Assembly: GCA_937894085.1 (NCBI GenBank)
Contig: CALCSG010000074.1
Coordinates: forward strand, 1 to 43,820
Reading direction: 5' to 3'
DNA from: an uncultured Gammaproteobacteria bacterium
GTDB lineage: Bacteria > Pseudomonadota > Gammaproteobacteria > GCA-001735895
Length of the DNA: 43,820 nt
Position numbers and translations under genes: made by a program. Below are positions 480 through 37,923 of this stretch, one piece after another. The notes beneath the pieces are model-generated. The model made no database searches. It was not told where the DNA came from and saw only the letters and a list, made by a program, of their open reading frames with translations. Position 1 is the first letter of the stretch. Each line of letters begins with the position of its first letter.

Positions 480-508
480 CCAGAGCGGAGTCGTTTTGTC
501 CGCTCTGG
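480..508 (+). terminator. Perfect 10-bp hairpin after the first gene
   Basis: CCAGAGCGGA (480-489) pairs with TCCGCTCTGG (499-508) across a 9-base loop, about 40 bases after the stop of the first gene. There is no U-run after it, so it is not a textbook intrinsic terminator. It is fused to the dispersed repeat starting at 507. Confidence 0.4.
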
Positions 509-565
509 GTCGATTCCAGCGATAGCGAAGGCTGATGCGATTGACCGCTTATTTGACTAACCGGA
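507..565. repeat. Dispersed intergenic repeat, copy 1
   Basis: About 58 bases starting GGGTCGATTCCAG closely match a second copy at 2346-2404. Both copies follow a gene, and both are preceded by a sequence that can fold. Differences are scattered substitutions, with about four fifths of bases identical by eye. It may be a miniature repeat or a cargo-cassette junction. I could not match it to an integron attC core site. Confidence 0.5.
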
Positions 566-954
566 CTTACAGGGTCTGGTACATTAAAAATATTTAATTT
601 CTAACACTGAATACCCGCTGTGTTGATAAAGCAGTCGTTCCCGATAATTTAGCGTATGTCTTTGGGGTGCTATGAGCAGTCAGTCCGTACATGCAGTAGG
701 TTGCTACCGGATTATGGACTAACTTGCTTATCTGGCTGAAATATGGAATGGTTGGTCTAGAGCGGGAGCTGAAATTTAAAGTCAGTCAAAAACTCCAGGC
801 AGGAGAGAAAATATCTGAATTGCAGCACACAACTCAAAGCCGATGGCGAGTAATAAATTGGTGCTAGATTCTGATTCAGTGAAAAATCTGTGTAGTTGTT
901 TTATGTTTTGGTGGGAATTTGGAAACAAACATTTCAAATCTATTTGAGTTGCGT
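566..954. other. Gene-free stretch
   Basis: Between the repeat and the Sel1-type gene I see no convincing gene, RNA or strong inverted repeat. The AT-rich end of this stretch probably holds the promoter of the next gene, but I cannot pick -35/-10 boxes with confidence. Confidence 0.3.
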
Positions 955-2456: not shown

Positions 2457-3287
2457 TTAGCTGAAATATCTTCTTCTTAGGTATTCAATATAATTTTGAT
2501 TCACACTATCGCTTTCATCTAGTGCGCGAAATAATTCCTGATAGCTTATTGCCTTGAATCGAAGTTCCTCACCTACCACATCAGTAAATAGGTTAATTTC
2601 ATTTTTGTGTACTTTAGTTTCATTCCCACCTGGCCAATCATAATATATGTAGTAGAGAGAGAATCGACCCTCAAGTTGCGTAGCCATACCCAATGCATGT
2701 TTTAATAACTGGGGAGTATCAAGATAACGAAAATTTTCACTTCCATTAAATATAGCTTCTGAAATTTCTTGTGTTTTAGTTAAACCATAATTGCTCCATA
2801 GTCGTTCATCTTCTGGAAAGTATTTTTGCTTGAAAGTGTCTTTGTTTTTCGATTTTGGAGTCAGCCACTCACTAAATTTACTTTCAATCCCAATTATATG
2901 ACGTGTAGATAATTTTAGAGCGATATCAAGATTTGGAGGGATGCCGTTCAAACCAGTTGAAAACTGCTCTTCAAAAGAGATTGAGTCAATAGTATCCTCT
3001 ATCCCTAATGCTAATTGCAGTGTTGAAGTGTCTTTATCTACCCAGCTATCAAACACATTAACCGCCAGAGCAGATGACGAATGGAGAGCACGCATCTTTG
3101 CAGGTCGAGATGCTGTATCAATAAGTTCAGAACCACTACCATTGTTGAATGCCGTCCTGGTTCGAGATGAAAGTGGCTTCACTAAATTCGATTCAATGTT
3201 ATCAAGATAGCCACGTGAATCAGGGTTTAGCCCTACCGACTCGGCCCAATTCTTCTGTTGTTGAATCAACTCTGTTCTTGATGTCAT
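2457..3287 (-). CDS. Putative PD-(D/E)XK nuclease, PGN_0703-like
   Basis: 276 residues, with a complete frame opposite to its neighbours. Residues 66-80 (ALHSSSALAVNVFDSW) and 104-137 resemble proteins annotated as PGN_0703-type putative restriction endonucleases. The candidate active site is D121 (PPNLDIAL) followed 14 residues later by E135-S-K137 (IIGIESKF), which is the D...ExK arrangement of the superfamily. No methylase or specificity subunit lies next to it, so it is not an ordinary restriction system. As a lone nuclease in a mobile element it may be a defence gene. The motif reading is solid; the family name and role are inference. Confidence 0.55.
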   Translation of the reverse strand: MTSRTELIQQQKNWAESVGLNPDSRGYLDNIESNLVKPLSSRTRTAFNNGSGSELIDTASRPAKMRALHSSSALAVNVFDSWVDKDTSTLQLALGIEDTIDSISFEEQFSTGLNGIPPNLDIALKLSTRHIIGIESKFSEWLTPKSKNKDTFKQKYFPEDERLWSNYGLTKTQEISEAIFNGSENFRYLDTPQLLKHALGMATQLEGRFSLYYIYYDWPGGNETKVHKNEINLFTDVVGEELRFKAISYQELFRALDESDSVNQNYIEYLRRRYFS

Positions 3288-3480: not shown

Positions 3481-3855
3481 ATGACTTACGAAACATCTGT
3501 GCTCATAAATAAAATAAAAAGCTCATTAAACAATAATTACCAACAGTTTCCTTTAGATTTAGAAAACCAGATACCATCGAGCAGTTTAGATGAACTGGTC
3601 AACCTTGCTGCAGAAAAAGAATCAGAATGGAATACTACTCTAGAAACATTGCACCAGTTCATAAATGGAGTCACAAAACTTGACTGCTTCACTTACCGTG
3701 CGGTCAATCAGGTCGGTGATGAACTGGTTTATTGGAATGCTTTGCTACAGCCATTTGGTGTTTTTAAACAAGATGGTACGGTTATCTATCAGACTGATGC
3801 TCCCTACCCCACAGCTGATATGATTATTGCCTGGTGCAATAGACAGGTTTCATGA
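3481..3855 (+). CDS. Hypothetical protein preceding the relaxase
   Basis: 124 residues, with no signal peptide or membrane segment. The ATG at 3481 has AGGA 8 bases upstream. The stop TGA (3853-3855) overlaps the likely relaxase ATG (3852-3854) as ATGA, so the two genes are translationally coupled and probably work together. The N-terminal half is predicted helical; the C-terminal half has a FGVFKQDGTVIYQTDAPYP segment. I do not recognise the family. A DNA-transfer accessory role is suggested only by the coupling. Confidence 0.6.
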   Translation: MTYETSVLINKIKSSLNNNYQQFPLDLENQIPSSSLDELVNLAAEKESEWNTTLETLHQFINGVTKLDCFTYRAVNQVGDELVYWNALLQPFGVFKQDGTVIYQTDAPYPTADMIIAWCNRQVS

Positions 3856-5785
3856 AAATGTTTTCCTGGAAAACTAAAAAAAAACAGTCTTTGAATTAAA
3901 CCAGAAAAAGCTCCCCATATTAGCTGGCCATGAGCTTATAGAGTTATTGGGTCTCGGTAACAAAATTAAATCTATAGAACGTATAACCAGCGTTGGATCA
4001 GAATATTTTAATGGATTATACCGCCCCGCTATTGAGTTGTTTATTGAGTCTGTACAGTTAGCACCCGCATCGACTGCTCACCACCACGCTGGCCCTGGTG
4101 GTTTAGCAACTCATACCATTGATGTTATAGAAAGAGCGTTGAGACAACGTAAATCATTTGAACTTCCGTTAAATGCTGACTCAGAAATTATATTTCAGCA
4201 AGATCACTTCTGGACATATTCGATTTTCATCGGGGCATTGCTACATGATATTGGGAAAATGATCACAAGCACTTTGATCGTGTTAGATAATGGAAAGATC
4301 TGGAACCCGCATCAAAGTAGTCTGTTGAATTCTGGAGCAAATTCTTACCAAATCCGTTTTGATCAAAATCCATATAAATATCATACCCAGATAGCCAATA
4401 GCTTTTTTCACATAATCCCCGAAAAAGGACGAGGTTGGCTCGCTCAATACCCTGATATATTTTCTGAACTGTGTGCATGGCTCTACGGTGATTACTATGA
4501 ATTTGGCATGATCGGTAAAATTATCCGCTTTGCGGATGGCCAATCGGTTGCATCAAACCTTAAAATTGGGGGTGAACAGGCACGATTCATCAATGCCCCG
4601 GAAATTCCACTGATTGAAAAAATGATGACAGCCCTTCGAGAGCTGCTGCAAACAGGAGCGCTGAAGATAAATGGAGCTGAAGGGTCATCAGGCTGGTGCA
4701 TGGGTTCCTTTACCTATCTGGTCTGTGGAACCGTGGCAGATAAGGTTCGTAGCTACCTGTTAAAATTAGGTTCTACTGATATCCCTGGTGACAATACTCG
4801 TCTATTTGATACCTGGCAGGAACATGGCTATGCCATCAGCAATCAGAGTGATGCCGCAATATGGTTAATCAAAATTAACGACCGTTTCAAATTAACCGTT
4901 CTTAAATTTGAAACCAATAGATTATTCCACCCAAGCAAACAACCGGGAGAATTTCTGGGACAAATATCAGTCATTGAAAATAATCAAGGTATTGATCAGA
5001 ACGACAATCAAGCTAAAAAACCAGTAGCTGAGACAACTATCCAACATCAAGCTGCTGAATCAACCATCCAGACCGATTTAACTCAAGTGACTGAAACAAA
5101 TGTGAAGGGTGACTACAAATCTGTACCAGATAATGAGCAAAATACTGTTTCAACGCAACCTGAAACAGATTCTCCGGGTTCTGCGGCAGATTTAACTGCA
5201 AATAACCAGAAAAATACCCCTGTGAAAGATTTTTACAGGGATGAAACTGAAGATAATCGAGAGCTGAAACAAAGCAATGAAGGGGAAGGTAACAATCGAG
5301 GTTCTACGCCTAACTATCAGAAACTCAGTAAGCTTCCTGAAGATTTAAAACTGGAAGATCCAGACATTGCCAAACATTTCATTATCTGGATTAAAGAAGG
5401 TCTTCAGGAAAGAAAGATTCAGGTCAATAATTCAAAGGCACTCGTACATGTTGTAAAAGAAGGGGTTTTGATTGTCACTCCTATAGCCTTCAAGAAATTT
5501 ATCTGGGAGAACAAGCTTAATGTTGATGGAGGTAATATCAATAAACAACTGACACGGATTCAGGATCGTTTGAAGACAAACATGGAAAAGAAAAAACTGC
5601 ATCGAAGAACAAAATCAGGTCTTAATATTCATACCTACCATATTAATGGCGATTCAAAATCAGCAAAAATCAAGTGCTGGCTATTACCAGTTAAAACCAT
5701 TTTTGAAAATTCCAAGCCACCATCCATAAATCCTGTACTTGAAAATGCCAGTGGATTTAGTAGTGATACTGAGAATGTAAAATGA
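3852..5785 (+). CDS. traI: MobH-type TraI relaxase (conjugation/mobilisation)
   Basis: The TraI_2 domain lies in the N-terminal half: HHHAGPGG (HHH at 4079-4087), then LLHDIGK and NGKIWNPH. A low-complexity linker follows (about 4960-5300), then a TraI_2_C/DUF1528-like domain near the end (HVVKEGVLIVTPIAFKKFI). MobH relaxases nick the transfer origin of integrative elements and some plasmids. The long uninterrupted frame begins after a TAA at 3875. The natural start is ATG 3852, whose frame meets the main frame if the A9 run (3876-3884) had ten or seven A; the joined N-terminus then reads naturally into LPILAGHELIELLGLGNKIK. The total would be about 644 residues. The family is clear; the start depends on the homopolymer. 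Confidence 0.85.
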
Positions 5786-5837
5786 TTAATAAAATTGAAA
5801 GCTTATTTGATTGCAGCCATTCTCAAATTGTGACATT

Positions 5838-5865
5838 TTGTCCATTTTTTTACCCATATGGACAA
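5838..5865. promoter_or_regulatory. Inverted repeat just upstream of the xafT-like gene
   Basis: TTGTCCAT (5838-5845) and ATGGACAA (5858-5865) form perfect 8-base arms, ending 5 bases before the ATG at 5871. It may be a regulator binding site or may mask the start codon in the RNA. The decayed copy near 8490 keeps the TTTTGTC part but not the symmetry. Confidence 0.4.
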
Positions 5866-5870
5866 CTGAA

Positions 5871-6224
5871 ATGAGGCCTGAAAGCCATAATACCCTTAAT
5901 TATTTACCACATTTGAGGCTTTTAGCCGGTTTTAGAACACAGCAAGATGCAGCAGATTATTTTGAAGTTCACAGGAAAACTTGGAATCGTTGGGAAAAGT
6001 CGGGAAAGATAAGAAGGAATGTCCGAGAAATGCTAAAAATTAAAGCTGGATACCTCCCTTTCAGCGACTGGCATAAATTTAGATTTAGTGATGGAAAGCT
6101 CTGGACACCGCAGAACTACGGGCTTTCTCCCAATGTCATAGAATCTCTTCCCTTATTATTACAATCAGCTAGAGATACATTTGGATATGATGAATTTGTA
6201 AAAGCCAGGGAATTAGATTCCTAA
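5871..6224 (+). CDS. VC1465/XafT-like (DUF3653) DNA-binding protein
   Basis: I take ATG 5871 (117 residues), because the segment before it is not protein-like and holds the inverted repeat. Residues 12-50 form a helix-turn-helix (LLAGFRTQQDAADYFEVHRKTWNRWEKSGKI). The rest, with W-HKFRFSDGKLWTPQNYGLSP, matches the layout of the VC1465/DUF3653 family. The TLC satellite phage member, XafT, activates XerD and is used by elements that integrate at dif. Here the gene follows a relaxase gene and is followed within 170 bases by a dif-like site, which supports that role. It could instead be a plain phage-type repressor. Confidence 0.6.
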   Translation: MRPESHNTLNYLPHLRLLAGFRTQQDAADYFEVHRKTWNRWEKSGKIRRNVREMLKIKAGYLPFSDWHKFRFSDGKLWTPQNYGLSPNVIESLPLLLQSARDTFGYDEFVKARELDS

Positions 6225-6239
6225 GCCTGCCAGGGGAAA

Positions 6240-6261
6240 AGCGCCATATTTTTATGGCGCT
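6240..6261 (+). terminator. Intrinsic terminator-like hairpin after the xafT-like gene
   Basis: AGCGCCATA (6240-6248) pairs perfectly with TATGGCGCT (6253-6261) around a TTTT loop, 16 bases after the stop codon. The downstream T-run is poor (CTTAGCTTA). Confidence 0.6.
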
Positions 6262-6315
6262 CTTAGCTTAGCCCATTGCTTCAAAAGAAAATATATTTGA
6301 ATATTTCTTAATTGA

Positions 6316-6359
6316 CCGATAATATCGGGCTTGTTTAGGTTATCCCTTACGCGGATAAC
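6316..6359. other. Two palindromes next to the dif-like site
   Basis: CCGATA-A-TATCGG (6316-6328) and GTTATCC-N7-GGATAAC (6339-6345 and 6353-6359) lie 26 to 70 bases before the dif-like site. The first is kept in the second copy (8778-8789); the second is kept only in part. Candidates are accessory protein sites for recombination or part of a transfer origin. Confidence 0.4.
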
Positions 6360-6384
6360 TTTAAATCACCTCCTCATTAGACCA

Positions 6385-6412
6385 ACCCCAAGGTCTGTAT
6401 ATTATGTAAAGT
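6385..6412 (+). other. dif-like Xer recombination site 1
   Basis: TGTATA (6396-6401) followed by TTATGTAAAGT (6402-6412) matches the central region and XerD arm of E. coli dif (TGTATA, TTATGTTAAAT) at 15 of 17 bases. The preceding 11 bases (6385-6395) do not resemble a XerC arm. Degenerate arms are usual in the attachment sites of elements that use the host XerCD. A near-identical copy lies at 8845-8872. Confidence 0.55.
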
Positions 6413-6594
6413 TAAATATTTAATTAAATCAATAAGATAAATAATTAATCTAATGTATTGCTTTAATAAAATACGAATACTAACCAACTTTAATTAAGCC
6501 TGATGGAGTCGAATATCGTTTAATTTAAGTACTTACCTGCTTCTATCTTTTCGTGTGAAGGTTATCAGCTGTAATAAAATCAAACTCTCACTCT

Positions 6595-7501
6595 CTATTC
6601 CACAGACAAAACTTCCTGAAGCTTTTCATAGGCTGCTTTATGTTTCCCTGGATCCATTTTTTTTAAATTGATCAGTTTCCAGTTCACTGCCGGTAAATAT
6701 TCTACTCCCTGTAAATTGAGCAAACTCCAGTCTGGCAATTTGTTTTTGAATGACAGTAAAAAACGTTTTTCTTTTCTGTCAGTGATTCATTTACAAGGCG
6801 AATCAGTTGCTCCCGTGTTAATTCAAGTTCTTCAAGTGAAACGGTCTCCTGCTCCATTTGCACAAACTCGCCCTCATAAAGTTGCTTAAAATCTTTACGT
6901 ACTGGAGTAAGAAGCTCAGCTATAGGCCTAGGATGGCTTATCAGATAAATAATTAACGCCTGACGAATATCATCAGTGAGTCTAATACATGTTTTACATC
7001 ATAAAAATCCCTAGGATGCTGACGATCCAGTGATGCACAAATCTTCCCAGCATAAAGATCAGGGAGCGCCACAACAGCCATCTCAGCATAACCAAATTCG
7101 TCTTCTACTTTTTGGCACACTTCCAGTGATTCGGGTTTATAAACGGTTCCCCGTAAGACCGGTGATAACTCTATTTTAACTCTTACACCTTTACGGACTA
7201 CCACAAGACGTAATGCGTCAGATTTGTCTTTAAATGACTCAACAATTTCTGCGTCTGAAAAAACATCATTTATCCTCTGCGTAATTCGTTGCAGAGCTTT
7301 TTTAATATTATTGAGTACTGTTTGCCGGTCATTCATTGGCAAGTACACCAGATCTATATCCACTGAAAGCCGTGGTAAATTCAGCACAAATAAATTAATG
7401 GCTGTGCCACCTTTCAAGGCAAATCACTCTTCTTCAGCAATCAGCGGTAACAGTTGTACCAATAATTGGACCTGTTTGTAGTAAGTGCTCGTCCTATCCA
7501 T
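6595..7501 (-). pseudogene. abiEii: AbiEii nucleotidyltransferase toxin, broken
   Basis: The natural start is ATG 7499-7501, overlapping the end of abiEi by 8 bases. Reading from there gives an AbiEii-type N-terminus (MDRTSTYYKQVQLLVQLLPL). A TGA at 7424-7426 interrupts it where relatives have Cys before FALKGGTAIN. The nucleotidyltransferase core follows (GGTAIN, then SVDIDLVYLP with the metal-binding acids). At about 6985 the frame is lost and resumes as LTDDIRQALIIYLISHPRP, continuing to a normal C-terminus (LQEVLSVE) at TAG 6595-6597. Compared with relatives, about ten bases seem deleted at that point. Two lesions make an active toxin unlikely. The partner antitoxin is intact. Confidence 0.8.
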
Positions 7502-8273
7502 TCAAATCCTTCGGCACAGTGATTAGATATTTATTATCAAGTTTACCTTTAGCAGCGATAACTCGCTTACCCTTGCCAAGATTAAATTCTCTGTAATCCA
7601 GTTTATTTACCCATGAATAACCTGCTCTATCTGCTAGCCAGAAAAACAATCTTTTAACTTTGATATTGCTGCAGGCATGAAGAAGAACTAAAAGTTTTTT
7701 AGGTGATAGACTGGTCATTCCCTGCATTAACTCCTCTCCATGTTCAAAACTTATTATGTCAGGAAGATCTTTGAGCACTTCCAGTATGGCTTTTTCAGGG
7801 CATGATAACTTCACCGGTGGTAAGTCGTCTCGCCACCGGTGTTCTATCGTGTAGTTTGCATTCTCTACAACTTCTGGAGTCCATAATGTTTTGGTTCCAT
7901 GCCACTCAAAAGTAACCGGTAACTTCAATTTTTTAAGCCATGCTGGTAATTTATTCATCGAATACAGGCGGATGATTTTTGACTTGTTATTCGAAAGGTA
8001 TTGCCCATACCCAAGAAGTTCCAATGCAGTAAGCCCACCAACATCAACAGTTTGATCAGACATTTTTTGGAGTGAGCATACTACTCCCTGCCATGTTATC
8101 GGTACGCCACTACGCGCATATACACCAGTTGCCTGCATATCCAGCTTTTTACTTTTCAAGGCATTATCTATGCTATGAAGACTTAACCCCATGGATAACA
8201 GCCACTGTTTTGTCGCTATCATGCCATAGGGTAAGAGTTGGTCTAATGTTTGTTTAGTATTTGCGGTTACCAT
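7494..8273 (-). CDS. abiEi: AbiEi-type antitoxin (type IV TA)
   Basis: 259 residues, complete. It starts with a winged-helix segment (TLDQLLPYGMIATKQWLLSMGLSLHSIDNALKSKKL described by position, residues 8-42) that binds DNA in this family. A middle domain (VDVGGLTALELLGYGQYL) and the conserved KLSCPEKAILEVL region of AbiEi antitoxins follow. AbiEi represses its own operon and counteracts the AbiEii nucleotidyltransferase. The gene overlaps abiEii by 8 bases. Inverted repeats upstream (8281-8379) are plausible autoregulatory sites. It has outlived its damaged toxin, so it may now act only as a DNA-binding protein. Confidence 0.85.
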   Translation of the reverse strand: MVTANTKQTLDQLLPYGMIATKQWLLSMGLSLHSIDNALKSKKLDMQATGVYARSGVPITWQGVVCSLQKMSDQTVDVGGLTALELLGYGQYLSNNKSKIIRLYSMNKLPAWLKKLKLPVTFEWHGTKTLWTPEVVENANYTIEHRWRDDLPPVKLSCPEKAILEVLKDLPDIISFEHGEELMQGMTSLSPKKLLVLLHACSNIKVKRLFFWLADRAGYSWVNKLDYREFNLGKGKRVIAAKGKLDNKYLITVPKDLNG

Positions 8274-8280
8274 TTTTAAT

Positions 8281-8379
8281 ATTTACGGCGTTAATCAACG
8301 TGTTTAGCTAATAAACTAAACCAATAGGATACACTGCAGTTTATTAAATACAATTTATACGGCATAAAACGCCGTAAAT
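8281..8379. promoter_or_regulatory. Inverted repeats upstream of abiEi (likely autoregulatory operator)
   Basis: ATTTACGGCGTT (8281-8292) and AACGCCGTAAAT (8368-8379) are perfect 12-base inverted repeats about 75 bases apart. A third ACGGC half-site (8359-8363) faces the second arm, and GTTTAG/CTAAAC (8302-8307, 8316-8321) lies between. AbiEi proteins are known to bind inverted repeats in their own promoters. The first arm begins 7 bases upstream of the abiEi start codon. Confidence 0.6.
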
Positions 8380-8452
8380 AATTAAACTATCAAACTCTAT
8401 CATCTTTCTTCACTACTATCCCTAAATCTTGTTATTGAGAACACAGGTAAAT

Positions 8453-8675
8453 TTATTTGATTTGAATCACTTTTAAAATGTAACTTTTTGTCTGTTTTTA
8501 TTCCAACAAGGACGGTAAGAATTAGACCTGAAGTCAGTACATTCTTAATGTTATATATCACTTCTGAGACTATTAGAAGAAATGACTGAAGATGCAGCTG
8601 TTTACCTGCTCTTCAGTAAATGTCATCAAATAGATTTAGTAATGGAAGCTCTGGAAACCGCAGAACTACCGGCTT
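8453..8675 (+). pseudogene. Decayed second copy of the xafT-like gene
   Basis: Alignment by eye pairs 8453-8580 with 5803-5940 (upstream region and start of the xafT-like gene) and 8628-8673 with 6080-6122 (the segment encoding RFSDGKLWTPQNYG). The start codon has become ATT, the middle of the gene is missing and no frame survives. The copy is followed, as in the intact one, by the flank with palindromes and a dif-like site. Confidence 0.65.
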
Positions 8676-8740
8676 TACTATCATCTCATTGAGTTACTTC
8701 ATCTACTATTCCTAATCACCAGAAATACACACGCGATTGT

Positions 8741-8872
8741 TTGAAAAGAAAAATATAATTGAATATTTCCTAATTGACCGATAATATCGCATTAACAGGT
8801 TGTCATTTATCGGATTAACTTAACTTGTCTCCTCCTTTAGGCCATCCCCAAGGTCTGTATATGATGTAAAGT
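8741..8872. repeat. Second copy of the att-proximal flank
   Basis: This roughly 130-base segment matches 6279-6412 over its whole length, including GAATATTTC, TAATTGACCGATAATATCG and the dif-like core. It shows scattered substitutions. The pair of flanks brackets the AbiE module. Confidence 0.75.
8845..8872 (+). other. dif-like Xer recombination site 2
   Basis: TGTATA (8856-8861) followed by TGATGTAAAGT (8862-8872) differs from site 1 by one base in these 17 positions. Its left 11 bases (8845-8855) are nearly the same as site 1 and again not XerC-like. The two sites are direct repeats 2460 bases apart, so recombination between them would release the AbiE module as a circle. Confidence 0.5.
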
Positions 8873-8969
8873 TGGATGAAGGGGTAAGTTAAGAGTCAAT
8901 TCAAGGACAGCCTGTTAGATAGATTTAAATAAATTAAATTGCAGTAAATACGGACGAATTACCCCGTTA

Positions 8970-9046
8970 GTCGAGTAAGCAAGGGGAACTTCCCCCCAAG
9001 CTTCTCACACAACCGTACGTGAAACTCTCGCTTCATACGGCTCTTA
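8970..9046 (-). ncRNA. Group II intron 3' end (domains V and VI)
   Basis: On the minus strand 9043-9011 reads as a classic 33-base domain V: GAGCCGTATGAAGCGAGAGT, then TTCACGTACGGTT, with complementary GAGCCGTA and TACGGTT ends. A domain VI-like hairpin (GGGG/CCCC, about 8983-8996) and CTTACTCGAC near the 3' splice end (about 8970) follow. It lies just downstream of the maturase remnant, as expected for an ORF carried in domain IV. Domains I-III are absent from the window. Confidence 0.75.
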
Positions 9047-9050
9047 TCAT

Positions 9051-10190
9051 TCACCATTGAACGCATGTTTGACTCCAGTGTGCAAATAGCTGTCTATTCC
9101 TTCTTCTGAAGGCATTCAGTCTTTTTGCAGCCTGAAATAATGACCTGACCTTTTTATACTTGTGCAACGCCCAGCGATTGAGTCTCTTATCAAAGTGAAC
9201 GAGTAGTTTGGCTGCTGCCGCTTTCCCGAATGCTCCGTAATAGTTCATCCAACCTCTCAGCTTGTTGCTACAAAAACGTATTATGACGTTAATACTACAC
9301 TGCTGCCATTTCTGCCAAGGCCATTCATTTATTGCGCTTTTTATCCACTTTGCTGCTTTTTGACTTATCCCTGGTATAAAACAGATTCGAAATGGAGCTT
9401 TGCGTGTTTTCACTAATCTGGGCTGAAAGGTAAACCCAAAAAAGTCAAAACTTACTCGGTCATAATTCGCCTTGTTTAACCAGCTTTTACAGTAGACGAT
9501 TTTGGTCTTTTCCGGATGGAGCGTTAAACCACAGTCATTAAACCTTTTCGTTAGAATCGATTGTAATTTTATGGCTTCCTGTTCTGTCTTACAGTGGCAC
9601 ACTATCATCAGCATATCGTTCAAACTGTATATCTTCTCAGCTCCTTTCCACCCAGAGATCAAAGGTATAGTGTAGAAAAAGGTTCGCTAGAAGTGGACTA
9701 ATGACCCCTCCTTTTAACGTGCTTTTCTACCGCACGCATCAGTAGGTCATGGTCTATGGCATCAAAGAAACCTTTGATATCCATGTCTAATACCCATGCC
9801 CTTTTCCAGCATCTTGCCCTTACTTTTTCAAGCGCCTGATGCGCTGATTTGTTCGGGCGATAACCATACGAATCCGGATGAAAGTGTTGCTCCAGCTCCT
9901 CTTCTACTTGCAGCTTCACGGCCATTTGAGCTATCCGATCGCTAATCGTGGGAATACCTAATGATCTTATCCCTCCATCTGCTTTCGGTATTTCTACTCG
10001 CTTGACCGCTTGCGGAAAATAACTTCCCGATGACATTCGGTTCTATAGCTTGTAAAGGTTGCTCTTGAGGTTCAGTTCAAACAATTCGAGTGTTTGACCA
10101 TCAACTCCTGCACTACCTTTGTTAGCTTTGACACGTTTATACGCCTCCAATATCAGGCGCTTCGGAATGTTATGCGGATGAAGGGTTGCT
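9051..10190 (-). pseudogene. ltrA: Group II intron reverse transcriptase/maturase remnant
   Basis: The RT N-terminus is recognisable from about 10180 (PKRLILEAYKRVKANKGSAG). It is interrupted by TAG at a position where relatives have Trp (LYKL-stop-NRMSSGSYFP). It continues through GIRSLGIPTISDRIAQ and LDMDIKGFFDAIDHDLL to about 9700. There the region between HVK and GGVISPLLANLF is deleted. YADD is present only in a third frame. The thumb, maturase and C-terminal part (LHPEKTKIVYCK ... GWMNYYG) runs from about 9660 to 9051. The protein cannot be made. The remnant directly abuts the yqjK stop codon, so the intron's 5' half was lost there. Confidence 0.85.
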
Positions 10191-10191
10191 G

Positions 10192-10470
10192 CTACCTGCC
10201 GCGTAGTTTATTGATAATCTGCCATGTCCCCCAGCCACGACCAAACCATTTCAAAACATGTTTCGGTTTGATCACTACAAGCAGCACGACGACACCGGCT
10301 ATCCATTCGGGATGGCGTCCGAGTTTTCGCAGTGCGCTCAATCCCTGGTCAACAAACGCCAGTGGCATACGCCACGTCTCGAAATTCTGAGCCAGAGTTA
10401 CCCGTTGCGCTGAGATTTGCGCAACCAGGCGTTCTCGTTTTTCTGCCAGTTTACGTTGTTTTTTATTCAT
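10192..10470 (-). CDS. yqjK: YqjK-like protein
   Basis: 92 residues from ATG 10468-10470, overlapping yqjE by 4 bases (ATGA). The N-terminus is a charged helix (NKKQRKLAEKRERLVAQISAQR), typical of YqjK-like proteins. A hydrophobic segment (IAGVVVLLVVI) and a basic tail follow. Third gene of a yqjD-yqjE-yqjK operon of envelope-stress proteins with unknown mechanism. Its stop codon is the last base of normal chromosome before the intron remnant, so the very C-terminus (INKLRGR) may have been altered by that junction. Confidence 0.75.
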   Translation of the reverse strand: MNKKQRKLAEKRERLVAQISAQRVTLAQNFETWRMPLAFVDQGLSALRKLGRHPEWIAGVVVLLVVIKPKHVLKWFGRGWGTWQIINKLRGR

Positions 10471-11754: not shown

Positions 11755-12537
11755 ATGAAACAACTTGACCTCGTCCAATACCCAGAAATTGACATGCACG
11801 AACACAATCCACTTCAGAACCACCTGCTAGCCGCCCTCCCTGCTCAGGAATACACACTGCTGTCGCCAAATCTTGAACTGGTATCAATGCCACTTGGCAA
11901 GGTGCTCTACGAGTCCGGCGACGAACTGAATCACGTTTATTTTCCCACCAACTCCATCGTGTCGTTACTCTACGTCATGCTCGATGGCGCATCGGCGGAA
12001 ATCGGTGTGGTCGGCAACGAAGGCATCATCGGTGTAGCCCTGTTTATGGGCGGCGAGACCATGCCCAACCGCGCCGTGGTGCAGAGCGCCGGCTACGCCT
12101 TCCGCCTGAAGGGGCAACTGCTTAAACTGGAATTCAATCGCTCCGGTGAGCTACAGCATCTGCTTCTGCGTTACACCCAGGCCCTGCTGACCCAGATGGC
12201 ACAAACCGCAGTGTGCAACCGGCATCATTCACTCGACCAGCAGCTTTGCCGCTGGCTACTGTTAAGCCTCGACCGCCTGACCTCCAATGAACTGGTGATG
12301 ACCCAGGAGTTGATTGCCAATATGCTCGGGGTACGCCGCGAGGGCGTCACCGAGGCAGCTGGCAAACTGCAGAAAGCCGGCCTGATCACCTATCAACGAG
12401 GACACATCACTGTAATCGACCGGCCCGGACTGGAGGCACGATCCTGCGAGTGCTACTCCGTTGTCAAGCATGAGTTCGACCGCCTGCTGCCAGAGGTTGC
12501 CCCGCGCTTGAAAGGTCACTTTCACACCAGGTCATAG
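11755..12537 (+). CDS. Crp/Fnr-family transcriptional regulator A
   Basis: 260 residues from ATG 11755. ATG 11794 would give the same N-terminal length as the paralogue at 37198; neither has a clear ribosome binding site. Residues of about 20-150 form the cyclic-nucleotide-binding-like beta roll. It lacks the CRP cAMP residues and the FNR N-terminal cysteines, so the ligand is unknown. The C-terminal winged helix has recognition region MLGVRREGVTEAAGKLQ, and the protein ends with a CECY motif. It is convergent with the OmpA-family gene, with no gap. Operator 1 lies 55 bases upstream, suggesting autoregulation. Confidence 0.85.
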   Translation: MKQLDLVQYPEIDMHEHNPLQNHLLAALPAQEYTLLSPNLELVSMPLGKVLYESGDELNHVYFPTNSIVSLLYVMLDGASAEIGVVGNEGIIGVALFMGGETMPNRAVVQSAGYAFRLKGQLLKLEFNRSGELQHLLLRYTQALLTQMAQTAVCNRHHSLDQQLCRWLLLSLDRLTSNELVMTQELIANMLGVRREGVTEAAGKLQKAGLITYQRGHITVIDRPGLEARSCECYSVVKHEFDRLLPEVAPRLKGHFHTRS

Positions 12538-13404: not shown

Positions 13405-13844
13405 ATTTTTTCTCCTGTAATACGCTGTATTTCAAGCTTCAGCATGTCGATACTTTTTTGCATTTCCTGATTGTCCGATTCGGCCTTCGCTACTTCTGCC
13501 CTGGCGGAAGCGAGTTGCGCATCAACGCGCGACTGTTGGGCCAGGCGCTGGGCTTTATCCATATTCTCCGACTGCACCGCGCTGATAGCTGCGGTAAGTT
13601 TTTCGCGTGCATTGTCCAGTTCGTCGGAGGAATAATCCGCGACATCTGAGCGATTAGCTTCCACAATTGCCTGTTCTGCTGCCTGTATATCTGCGCTTGG
13701 CGGCGCCTGTGCAGAAGCACAGGCGGCAAGCATCAGTAACCCCGCAACGGCGCTTCCCATAAACCTGGCTGTGGTTGCAGTAACCGGGCGCAATGACAAA
13801 TTGCTTTCTCCCCTTACCGTTGATAATTGTACTGTCTGAATCAT
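13401..13844 (-). CDS. DUF4398 lipoprotein
   Basis: 147 residues. Translation may begin at the annotated ATG or at Met 29 (MGSAVAGLLMLAAC), which gives a shorter, more typical lipoprotein signal. The mature part is a DUF4398 helical hairpin (AEQAIVEANRSDVADYSSDELDNAREKL by position 57-85). The stop overlaps the start of the DUF4398-OmpA gene (ATGA), so the two products are probably partners in the periplasm. Operator 2 is 85 bases upstream. Confidence 0.8.
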   Translation of the reverse strand: MIQTVQLSTVRGESNLSLRPVTATTARFMGSAVAGLLMLAACASAQAPPSADIQAAEQAIVEANRSDVADYSSDELDNAREKLTAAISAVQSENMDKAQRLAQQSRVDAQLASARAEVAKAESDNQEMQKSIDMLKLEIQRITGEKI

Positions 13845-13929
13845 TTGGTTTTTCCTCTGTTAACGTTTGAATCGCGACATCCTACACCTCGATTTAGCAA
13901 TCAGTATCTTCGATCGCAACCAGCAATTC

Positions 13930-13945
13930 TGTTCGTTAGCGAACA
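13930..13945. promoter_or_regulatory. Candidate operator 2 (TGTTCG-TTAG-CGAACA)
   Basis: Perfect 6-base arms of the shared palindrome, in the divergent region between the DUF4398 operon (start 13844) and Crp/Fnr regulator B (start 14127). It is followed by TAGCG, as is operator 3. Confidence 0.65.
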
Positions 13946-14126
13946 TAGCGGGTGGCTGTGCTATCTTATGTGCGCTAGCGTCCAGACAGTCCCCGATTTT
14001 CAGACCATAGTGAGCTACATACATCAGTGGGCAATCAAACCTGCCCTTTCCTATCAACTATCGATACTGCATTTTCGAAACGCCATGTTTGGTTTTGCGG
14101 GTCTTACCGACACCAGGGAAGTTCAT

Positions 14127-14834
14127 ATGACAGTCATCAATTCAACACCTGGCGCCAACCGTTTACTAACCATCTTGCCGCACAAAGATCGTCAACTTTT
14201 TGTGGCAGCTTGCACACCGGTTGAGCTGGTTTTAGGCGAGATTCTGGCCGAACCCGGTGAACACACACCTCATGTCTACTTCCCCATGACAAGTTTCATT
14301 TCCCTGGTCATACCGATCGATAGTCACTCCAGTCTGGAGGTAGGCCTGATCGGAGATGAAGGTATGCTTGGAACTTCCCTCATACTTGGAGTCGAGGTAT
14401 CTCCACTGCGTGCTCTGGTGCAGGGGGCTGGCTCGGCTCTGCGTATGGACACAGCTGTGTTCATGCTTGAGCTCGAACACAATCCAGATTTGCAACGGGT
14501 GCTGAAGCTTTACCACTATGTAGTGATGTGCCAACTCGCACAAACTGCCGCCTGTACCCACTTCCATGTGGTTGAGGCACGCCTCGCCCGTTGGCTTCTA
14601 ATGACGCATGATCGAGCACACTCGGACACGTTTCATATCACTCACGAATTCCTCGCCTACATGCTGGGCGTACGTCGCGTCGGTGTTACCCGGGCTGCCA
14701 CTTCGTTACAAAATCAAAAAATCATTCACTATCGGCGCGGTGAAATTACGGTTCTCGACCGCAGTGCTCTGGAGGCCGCATCCTGCGACTGTTACGCTGC
14801 TGACATAGTAAGCTATGAGCGAATGCTGGGTTAA
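14127..14834 (+). CDS. Crp/Fnr-family transcriptional regulator B
   Basis: I choose ATG 14127 (235 residues): GGGAAG lies just upstream and the residues before it are not protein-like, although the frame stays open back to 13827. A cNMP-binding-like beta roll spans residues of about 12-125, followed by a winged helix. The recognition region is MLGVRRVGVTRAATSLQ, so Glu of paralogues A and C is Val here, suggesting a shifted DNA preference. It ends with a CDCY motif equivalent to CECY. It lies opposite the DUF4398 operon across operator 2. Confidence 0.85.
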   Translation: MTVINSTPGANRLLTILPHKDRQLFVAACTPVELVLGEILAEPGEHTPHVYFPMTSFISLVIPIDSHSSLEVGLIGDEGMLGTSLILGVEVSPLRALVQGAGSALRMDTAVFMLELEHNPDLQRVLKLYHYVVMCQLAQTAACTHFHVVEARLARWLLMTHDRAHSDTFHITHEFLAYMLGVRRVGVTRAATSLQNQKIIHYRRGEITVLDRSALEAASCDCYAADIVSYERMLG

Positions 14835-37197: not shown

Positions 37198-37923
37198 TCA
37201 CTTCTGACGATATTGCACATCAGACAGCAGACGGTTGAGTTCATCCCTGACCACGGCGTAGCACTCGCACGTCTGTCTCTCAAGTCCGGCGCGATCCAGC
37301 ACGGTAATGTGACCACGGCGATAACTGATAATACCGGCGTGTTGTAACTTTCCAGCTGCTTCGGTTATGCCCTCACGGCGAACACCCAGCATGCTTGCCA
37401 CCAGCTCCTGCGTCATCACCAGCTCATTAGTGGGTAAGCGGTCGAGGGTCAGTAATAACCAGCGGCACAACTGTTGCACCACAGAATGATGCCGATTGCA
37501 GGCGGCGGTCTGTGCCATCTGTGTCATCAGCGCCTGGGTGTAGCGCAATAACAAACCTTGCAGGAAACCGGCACGATTGAATTCCTGCATCAGCAAATTT
37601 TTATTCAGTCGGTAAGCATGACCCGCGGTCTGCACAACGGATGAGCTGGGTGTAGTATCACCGCCCATAAATAAAGAAACACCAACCATGCCTTCATTGC
37701 CCACCCCTGCGGTTTCGGCTGAGGCGCCCGACTCCATCACATAGTGTAGCGAGACGATCGCTGTGGTCGGAAAATAGGCGTACTCTAATTGCGTACCAGG
37801 TTCATATAATAATTCACCCAGCGGCAGCGGCATCAGTTCCAGATGTCTGGCCAGGATTTCAAATTCTTTCGTCGGTAGAGCGGCGAGCAAATGGTTTTGA
37901 TTAGGGCTATGTGGCGCTGCCAT
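37198..37923 (-). CDS. Crp/Fnr-family transcriptional regulator C
   Basis: 241 residues, clearly paralogous to regulator A along its whole length (NHLLAALPTKEFEILARHLEL; VGNEGMVGVSLFMGGDTTPS). The recognition region MLGVRREGITEAAGKLQ differs from A by one conservative change, so A and C should bind the same DNA. The CECY motif is present near the end. It begins 2 bases after the REC-PAS gene and is the last gene of the signalling operon. Confidence 0.87.
   Translation of the reverse strand: MAAPHSPNQNHLLAALPTKEFEILARHLELMPLPLGELLYEPGTQLEYAYFPTTAIVSLHYVMESGASAETAGVGNEGMVGVSLFMGGDTTPSSSVVQTAGHAYRLNKNLLMQEFNRAGFLQGLLLRYTQALMTQMAQTAACNRHHSVVQQLCRWLLLTLDRLPTNELVMTQELVASMLGVRREGITEAAGKLQHAGIISYRRGHITVLDRAGLERQTCECYAVVRDELNRLLSDVQYRQK

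What the first reader, a model, noticed from the sequence alone, without database searches (positions are those of the whole stretch)
3852..6412. Relaxase, XafT-like activator and dif-like site point to an Xer-exploiting mobile element
A MobH TraI gene, a VC1465/XafT-like gene and, 160 bases after it, a sequence matching 15 of 17 bases of the E. coli dif centre and XerD arm occur in order. XafT of the TLC phage activates XerD, and XafT-like genes mark integrative elements that use the host XerCD instead of their own integrase. No integrase gene is visible in this stretch. Pairing with a conjugative relaxase would make this a self-transmissible or mobilisable element of that kind.
Basis: partly seen in the sequence, partly recalled or inferred. 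Interest (0 to 1): 0.85.

Follow-up and report, generated by a model that had tools for sequence, protein, structure and literature searches.

The report
Conjugative element borrowing host Xer recombinase
The window holds one end of a self-transmissible DNA element of marine bacteria that appears to have replaced its own integrase with a small protein thought to switch on the host's chromosome-dimer recombinase, and it sits at the host's dif site next to a small hitch-hiking toxin-antitoxin unit.

Summary
traI (MobH) is followed by a VC1465/XafT-family gene (1e-11, below the curated cut-off) and a half-dif: TGTATATTATGTAAAGT is exactly the centre and XerD arm of this family's single-copy dif. 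The XerC arm is replaced by the recurring ACCCCAAGGTC.

The missing left boundary is contig C467: chromosomal fadBA, a complete dif, then parA and a PFGI-1-class parB. The same left end follows dif in two sister species. In one of them, traI–xafT is contiguous with a type-G conjugation cluster. A cousin element in this genome, and one in another genome, carry a tyrosine integrase exactly where the window has xafT. So this looks like a conjugative element that swapped its integrase for a Xer activator.

A palindrome lies 76–78 bp from every right-end site. The arm arrangement is the reverse of TLCphi and GGI.

Recombination itself is not shown. DNA beyond about 9–10 kb may be a chimeric join.

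The parts
3481..3855 (+). orf124, small gene overlapping the traI start; conserved partner upstream of traI in G000, G001, G004 and C473
   Evidence: tblastn 63-86% identity upstream of traI in L055, L057, L058
3852..5785 (+). traI, MobH relaxase; open frame from about 3947, start region split by an A9 run
   Evidence: TraI_2 8.2e-49, TraI_2_C 3e-28; NF041494 MobH 274.6 bits; A9 against A10 in G001
5871..6224 (+). xafT-like gene (HTH plus VC1465/DUF3653-type C-terminus), candidate XerD activation factor
   Evidence: NF040522 1e-11; hhalign 99.5% to other dif-linked XafT-like proteins
6283..6328 (.). conserved right-end sequence with palindrome CCGATAATATCGG, centre 78 bp before the crossover site; candidate accessory binding site
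   Evidence: invariant AATTGACCGATAATATCG in all 7 right ends aligned; only 2 copies in the window, 0.09 expected
6385..6412 (+). right-end attachment site of the ICE: replaced XerC arm ACCCCAAGGTC, centre TGTATA, XerD arm TTATGTAAAGT
   Evidence: exact match to centre and XerD arm of the family dif
6402..8861 (.). 2.46 kb satellite-like unit between two attachment sites, carrying AbiE genes and a relic of xafT
   Evidence: 87-92% identical units in G001 between sites 4064, 6566 and 9040; alignment of the two window ends
6953..7417 (-). abiEii nucleotidyltransferase (type IV toxin), broken in the window; intact 305 aa copies exist in G001
   Evidence: PF08843 6.9e-32; G001 ORFs
7494..8273 (-). 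abiEi antitoxin/regulator, 259 aa
   Evidence: PF11459 4.4e-42, PF17194 1.9e-20
8578..8732 (+). relic of xafT at the right end of the satellite unit
   Evidence: 79% DNA identity over 101 nt to G001 xafT; tblastn 50% identity, E 0.25
8775..8789 (.). second copy of the palindromic motif, 76 bp before its site
8845..8872 (+). second attachment site (one mismatch in the XerD arm)
8873..8937 (.). remnant of an ICE left end, cut just before the parA start
   Evidence: with the site, 89% identical to C467 5301-5385; side by side

Best explanation
The window contains the right end of a PFGI-1/pKLC102-class integrative and conjugative element (left end parA-parB, right end orf124-traI-xafT, MPF_G conjugation genes in the sister copy) that lives at the host's dif site and has no integrase at its ends. 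Most likely mechanism: (1) the XafT-like protein, perhaps bound at the palindrome 76-78 bp inside the right end, activates host XerD without FtsK [inferred]; (2) XerCD recombines the element's half-dif (centre plus XerD arm) with chromosomal dif inside the identical 6-bp centre TGTATA [the product is seen: host XerC arm, centre, then element]; (3) the left junction thereby keeps a complete dif for chromosome dimer resolution, while the right junction lacks a recognisable XerC arm and so should resist FtsK-driven excision [inferred]; (4) after excision the MobH relaxase and the MPF_G system transfer the circle [inferred from gene content]. Units that keep the right-end sequence but have lost xafT, here carrying the AbiE toxin-antitoxin system, stack up next to it and are probably moved in trans [inferred].
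For: Families: MobH relaxase and XafT family. Site equals the centre and XerD arm of the family dif. Left end: C467 has fadBA, mgtE, complete dif, parA, parB (TIGR03764 207.7 bits, cut-off 143.75); fadA flanks the XerC side of dif in more than 20 relatives; dif followed by the parA end also in G004 and G005. traI-xafT adjacency in three genomes, two of them from named separate sources. MPF_G T4SS contiguous with traI-xafT in G004; the orthologous cluster in G000:C473 passes the family cut-offs (TIGR03744 798 bits, TIGR03752, TIGR03749, TIGR03754), and G004's VirB4 is 87-99% identical to the three full or near-full copies in G000. Cousins with a tyrosine integrase in the xafT slot: C211, G139; the TraI tree places the xafT types together inside integrase types, support 84/84. 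Mobility: a 3.6 kb MPF_G segment is 96.6% identical between G000 and G004 while the fadBA locus is 71.8% identical. XafT-dif linkage across the class: 12 of 14 hits reaching past the HTH have a dif-like site nearby, 1 of 16 HTH-only hits. Tandem sites and conserved right end.
Against: The XafT-like score is below the curated NF040522 cut-off. No circular form or empty attP was seen; reads were not available. The full element was not assembled, so an integrase in the interior cannot be excluded. traI carries a start-region frame break and abiEii is broken in the window, so this copy may be decaying. XerC, XerD and FtsK genes of the host were not searched for. The XerC arm is unlike dif, so how XerC completes the second strand exchange is unclear.
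Confidence: 0.8

Rival explanations
1. The array is a fossil: an element that once used Xer, now immobile, kept as remnants at dif.
For: traI start region is out of frame in the window, and likewise in G004 and C473; abiEii is broken in the window; xafT relics in the satellite units; truncated parA ends in the window and G001.
Against: xafT is intact in the window and G001 and the traI body is a long open frame in three genomes; G001 traI is fully open from its ATG; the T4SS segment was exchanged recently between species; all sites keep an identical or nearly identical core and right end.
Confidence: 0.25
2. An integrase inside the element does the recombination and the XafT-like protein is only an HTH regulator.
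For: Cousin elements use tyrosine integrases; the interior of the element was not read completely.
Against: In cousins the integrase is terminal, next to traI, and that place holds xafT here; both ends show dif sequences, the natural XerCD target; XafT-like genes sit beside dif in a dozen other genomes.
Confidence: 0.1
3. xafT and the dif-like site belong to a separate small IMEX that landed beside an unrelated mobilisable island.
For: Other XafT-bearing elements in this class include short TLC-like units.
Against: traI and xafT are adjacent with short spacing in three genomes, and the parA end of the same ICE class is joined to dif in three genomes.
Confidence: 0.04
4. Metagenome assembly artefact.
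For: The window is a draft-genome contig; G+C jumps from 0.38 to 0.51 after about 9-10 kb at a group II intron end, so the right part may be a chimeric join.
Against: The arrangement up to 8.94 kb is reproduced in independently assembled MAGs (Saanich Inlet SI039_bin4 and NIOZ-UU29).
Confidence: 0.03

Closest known systems
TLCphi-type IMEX of Vibrio cholerae with XafT (Midonet et al. 2019, doi 10.1073/pnas.1902905116, cited in PMC9765430; mechanism reviewed in PMC4246890)
   Same: XafT-family protein beside a dif-like attachment site, insertion at host dif, tandem arrays
   Different: TLCphi is a satellite phage whose attP keeps the XerC arm and has a degenerate XerD arm; here the XerD arm is kept and the XerC arm replaced, and the element carries a relaxase and, in the sister copy, a conjugation system
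Gonococcal genetic island (GGI), conjugation-type island at dif (PMC5357621, PMC4207684)
   Same: MobH TraI, parA/parB, flanking dif sites, host XerCD
   Different: GGI has an F-type T4SS and a difGGI with a divergent XerD arm and is described as an FtsK/XerD-dependent integrant; whether it has a XafT-like gene was not tested here
PFGI-1/pKLC102-class ICEs (MPF_G, MobH)
   Same: PFGI-1-class ParB (TIGR03764) left end, MobH traI at the other end, TIGR03744/03749/03752/03754/03759 conjugation genes
   Different: Cousins found here have a tyrosine integrase next to traI; this lineage has xafT and a half-dif there
Acinetobacter pdif modules (PMC6449649, PMC13141974)
   Same: Small cargo units bounded by XerC/D-type sites
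   Different: Here the sites are in direct orientation, lack the XerC arm, and sit beside a chromosomal ICE at dif

Membership tests
IMEX (integrative mobile element exploiting Xer) | Inserted at the host's dif site | tested here: met
   C467: fadBA-side dif with parA-parB following; same in G004 and G005
IMEX (integrative mobile element exploiting Xer) | dif-like attachment site at the element ends | tested here: met
   6385-6412 and 8845-8872, plus five sites in G001
IMEX (integrative mobile element exploiting Xer) | No integrase of its own | tested here: inconclusive
   None at either end; interior not fully read
IMEX (integrative mobile element exploiting Xer) | Recombination depends on XerC/XerD | not testable with these tools
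   Needs an assay
TLCphi/XafT type | Encodes a VC1465/XafT-family protein | tested here: met
   NF040522 1e-11 but 44.9 bits against cut-off 70; hhalign 99.5% to dif-linked relatives
TLCphi/XafT type | attP with intact XerC arm and degenerate XerD arm | tested here: not met
   Reverse arrangement in every right-end site, while G142, G160, G185, G307 and G360 show the TLC arrangement
TLCphi/XafT type | XerD-first, FtsK-independent recombination | not testable with these tools
   Needs recombination assays with Xer and FtsK mutants
PFGI-1/pKLC102-class ICE | PFGI-1-class ParB | tested here: met
   TIGR03764 207.7 bits, cut-off 143.75, on C467
PFGI-1/pKLC102-class ICE | PFGI-1-class relaxase TIGR03760 | tested here: inconclusive
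   151.2 bits against a cut-off of 161.4; MobH NF041494 passes
PFGI-1/pKLC102-class ICE | MPF_G type IV secretion cluster in the same element | tested here: met
   Contiguous with traI-xafT in G004, orthologous to family-scored C473 genes; in G000 only on separate contigs
PFGI-1/pKLC102-class ICE | Terminal tyrosine integrase | tested here: not met
   xafT in its place; integrase present in cousins C211 and G139
GGI | F-type T4SS | tested here: not met
   Sister element is MPF_G; the F-type set of G000 (C66/C70) is on other contigs with its own relaxase
GGI | difGGI with divergent XerD arm | tested here: not met
   XerD arm is exact and the XerC arm is replaced

The most novel reading that the evidence does not exclude
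A conjugative element lineage has exchanged its tyrosine integrase for a Xer activator and uses a half-site of a new layout: XerD arm and centre kept, XerC arm replaced by a conserved non-dif sequence (CCAAGGTC), with a palindrome at a fixed 76-78 bp spacing. It also supports satellite units that carry the same right end and an AbiE system without their own xafT.
Probability: 0.5. Interest if true: 0.75.

Novelty: new variant of a known kind. Interest (0 to 1): 0.62.

Why it matters
Elements using host Xer are best known as small phages and the GGI. This one points to a further route by which a full conjugative element came to depend on the host's dimer-resolution machinery, with the integrase-bearing cousin preserved in the same genome for comparison. 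The reversed arm layout would test whether a XafT-type activator needs the XerD arm or the XerC arm, and the xafT-less units would test whether activation works in trans.

Tried and rejected
XafT close relatives in IMG/VR: none; in INPHARED phages only weak partial matches; in PLSDB plasmids none. PDB by sequence: nothing relevant. traI-xafT adjacency outside this genus: none of the other relaxase loci found among 369 genomes of the class had it. I first suspected that G142 shared the reversed arm layout; reading its three sites showed the ordinary TLC layout. I considered the window's 8856 site as the right chromosomal junction; what follows is an ICE left-end remnant, so the true right junction was not found. 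C473/C211 was considered as the T4SS part of the window element and rejected because it has its own traI followed by integrases. The XafT paper itself (doi 10.1073/pnas.1902905116) is not in the library.

Full report
What was checked. The window is contig C74 of a 6.0 Mb draft genome in 567 contigs. traI (3852/3947-5785) matches TraI_2 and TraI_2_C and the MobH equivalog above its cut-off. The gene at 5871-6224 matches NF040522, the VC1465 family of Xer recombination activation factors, with E 1e-11, though at 44.9 bits it stays under the curated 70. A profile of dif-linked XafT-like proteins from other genomes ranks it first among 518 window reading frames (8.6e-27; the next is 0.1), and profile-profile comparison gives 99.5% over 95 columns. 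The 6396-6412 sequence is not merely similar to E. coli dif: it is identical to the centre and XerD arm of the dif of this bacterium's own family, TGCGYATAATGTATATTATGTAAAGT, which occurs once in nearly every relative where it was found.

The other end. The same half-site with a true XerC arm occurs once elsewhere in the genome, on contig C467: fadB, fadA and mgtE on the left, then GATGCGTATAA-TGTATA-TTATGTAAAGT, then parA and a ParB of the PFGI-1 class. fadA lies at the XerC side of dif in more than 20 relatives, so this is the authentic chromosomal dif. In G005 and G004 dif is again followed by the parA end. The left junction thus retains a complete dif and the element begins to its right.

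The right end. In the window, and in G001 (SI039_bin4, Saanich Inlet) and G004 (NIOZ-UU29) (names), orf124, traI and xafT follow one another. In the window and G001 the half-site follows shortly after; in G004 the contig ends inside xafT. In G004 the same contig carries, upstream and divergent, an MPF_G conjugation cluster; its orthologues on G000:C473 pass the TIGR03744, 03752, 03749, 03754 and 03759 cut-offs, and G004's VirB4 is 87-99% identical to three full or near-full copies in G000. A 3.6 kb stretch of the G004 cluster is 96.6% identical to G000:C170 while the fadBA locus of the two genomes is 71.8% identical: the conjugation genes have moved between species.

The integrase swap. G000 contains a cousin element: C473 and C211 hold the two halves of another MobH traI of the same lineage, 81% identical over the N-terminal part. 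Directly after it come two tyrosine recombinases and an AlpA-type gene, and no xafT. G139 also has a tyrosine recombinase after traI. A TraI tree puts the three xafT-linked relaxases together (84/84), with integrase-linked C473 and then G139 outside. The simplest reading is replacement of an integrase by xafT plus a half-dif in this lineage; the support is moderate. That C473 and C211 form one gene is inferred from abutting contig ends.

Does the XafT family really go with dif? In a search of 369 genomes of the class, I scanned the 30 loci returned for dif-like half-sites (at most two mismatches). Of 14 hits that reach past the HTH part, 12 have one nearby; the exceptions are L069 (an interrupted reading frame) and L074 (contig ends at the gene). 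Of 16 HTH-only hits, one does (L093, an interrupted frame). The two groups were separated after the search and the count is small, but the contrast is strong. In five of these elements the internal sites show the published TLC layout, XerC arm and centre kept and XerD arm lost (layout as in PMC4246890). The window element is the reverse: XerD arm and centre kept, XerC arm replaced by a sequence that is itself conserved (CCAAGGTC, invariant in seven right ends).

The array. A second site lies at 8856-8872 in the window, and the sequence before it repeats that before 6396. Between them is a 2.46 kb unit with abiEi, a broken abiEii and a relic of xafT. G001 has four sites on one contig (4064, 6566, 9040, 11088), bounding two AbiE units, a third unit with another AbiEii-like gene, and a truncated parA end; a fifth site on C108 joins a right end to an intact parA-parB end. 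All seven right ends share AATTGACCGATAATATCG, containing the palindrome CCGATAATATCGG in some copies and one base short of it in others, with its centre 76-78 bp from the crossover centre. Its conservation in units that lost xafT suggests a cis-acting recombination function, and that such units are satellites served in trans. This is inference.

Mechanism and what is not shown. Shown from sequence: position at dif, the junction structures, gene content, conserved ends, tandem units. Inferred: XerD activation by the XafT-like protein, FtsK independence, excision, transfer, and the role of the palindrome. Not tested: host xerC, xerD and ftsK genes, circular forms, the element's interior. If the model holds, the complete left dif would continue to serve dimer resolution, and the missing XerC arm on the right would protect the element from FtsK-driven loss, by analogy with what is proposed for GGI (PMC5357621).

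Limits of the contig. The ICE left-end remnant stops at 8937, just before a group II intron 3' region (domain V at 8970-9045, minus strand), and the G+C rises from 0.38 to 0.51 beyond about 10.2 kb, while other contigs of this genome that were looked at are mostly near 0.41. The intron sequence occurs nowhere else in the assembly. A chimeric join or a later rearrangement is possible, so nothing beyond about 9 kb is used in the argument.

Verdict. The element is a new variant of a known kind: a PFGI-1-class conjugative element that behaves as a Xer-exploiting element, with a site layout opposite to the two best-known cases.

Noticed in passing
window 3852-3890; L058 14938-14980; L055 near 820: A run of 8-10 A shortly after the traI ATG differs in length between copies (A9 window, A9 G004, A8 C473, A10 G001) and only the G001 copy is in frame with the traI body. 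Programmed slippage, phase variation or sequencing error are all possible.
   Followed up: partly
window 8937-10200: Group II intron domain V and broken reverse-transcriptase frames exactly where an ICE left-end remnant stops, followed by a G+C step from 0.38 to 0.51: possible chimeric contig.
   Followed up: partly
G000:C66 and C70 (L054, L056): A separate F-type (SXT/GGI-like) conjugation gene set with its own MobH relaxase in the same genome.
   Followed up: no
G000:C170, C112, C473, C272: At least three full or near-full MPF_G VirB4 genes: the genome carries several related ICEs, and C170 looks rearranged, with a second partial VirB4.
   Followed up: partly
L098 (G142) 7734, 9241, 10658; L101 (G160) 9430, 11012, 12617: Clean TLC-layout tandem arrays with XafT-like genes at dif in two other genomes.
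   Followed up: partly
window 506-567 and 2345-2406: 62 bp direct repeat, 84% identical, flanking a TPR-protein gene region.
   Followed up: no
window 2457-3287: Restriction-endonuclease-like gene (REase-ARP, 6.7e-23) as cargo beside traI; G001 has different cargo at the same place.
   Followed up: no
window 11755-12537, 13827-14834, 37198-37923: Three related Crp/Fnr-type regulator genes in the 51% G+C part, together with an F-type ATPase cluster and a phosphoketolase-like gene.
   Followed up: no
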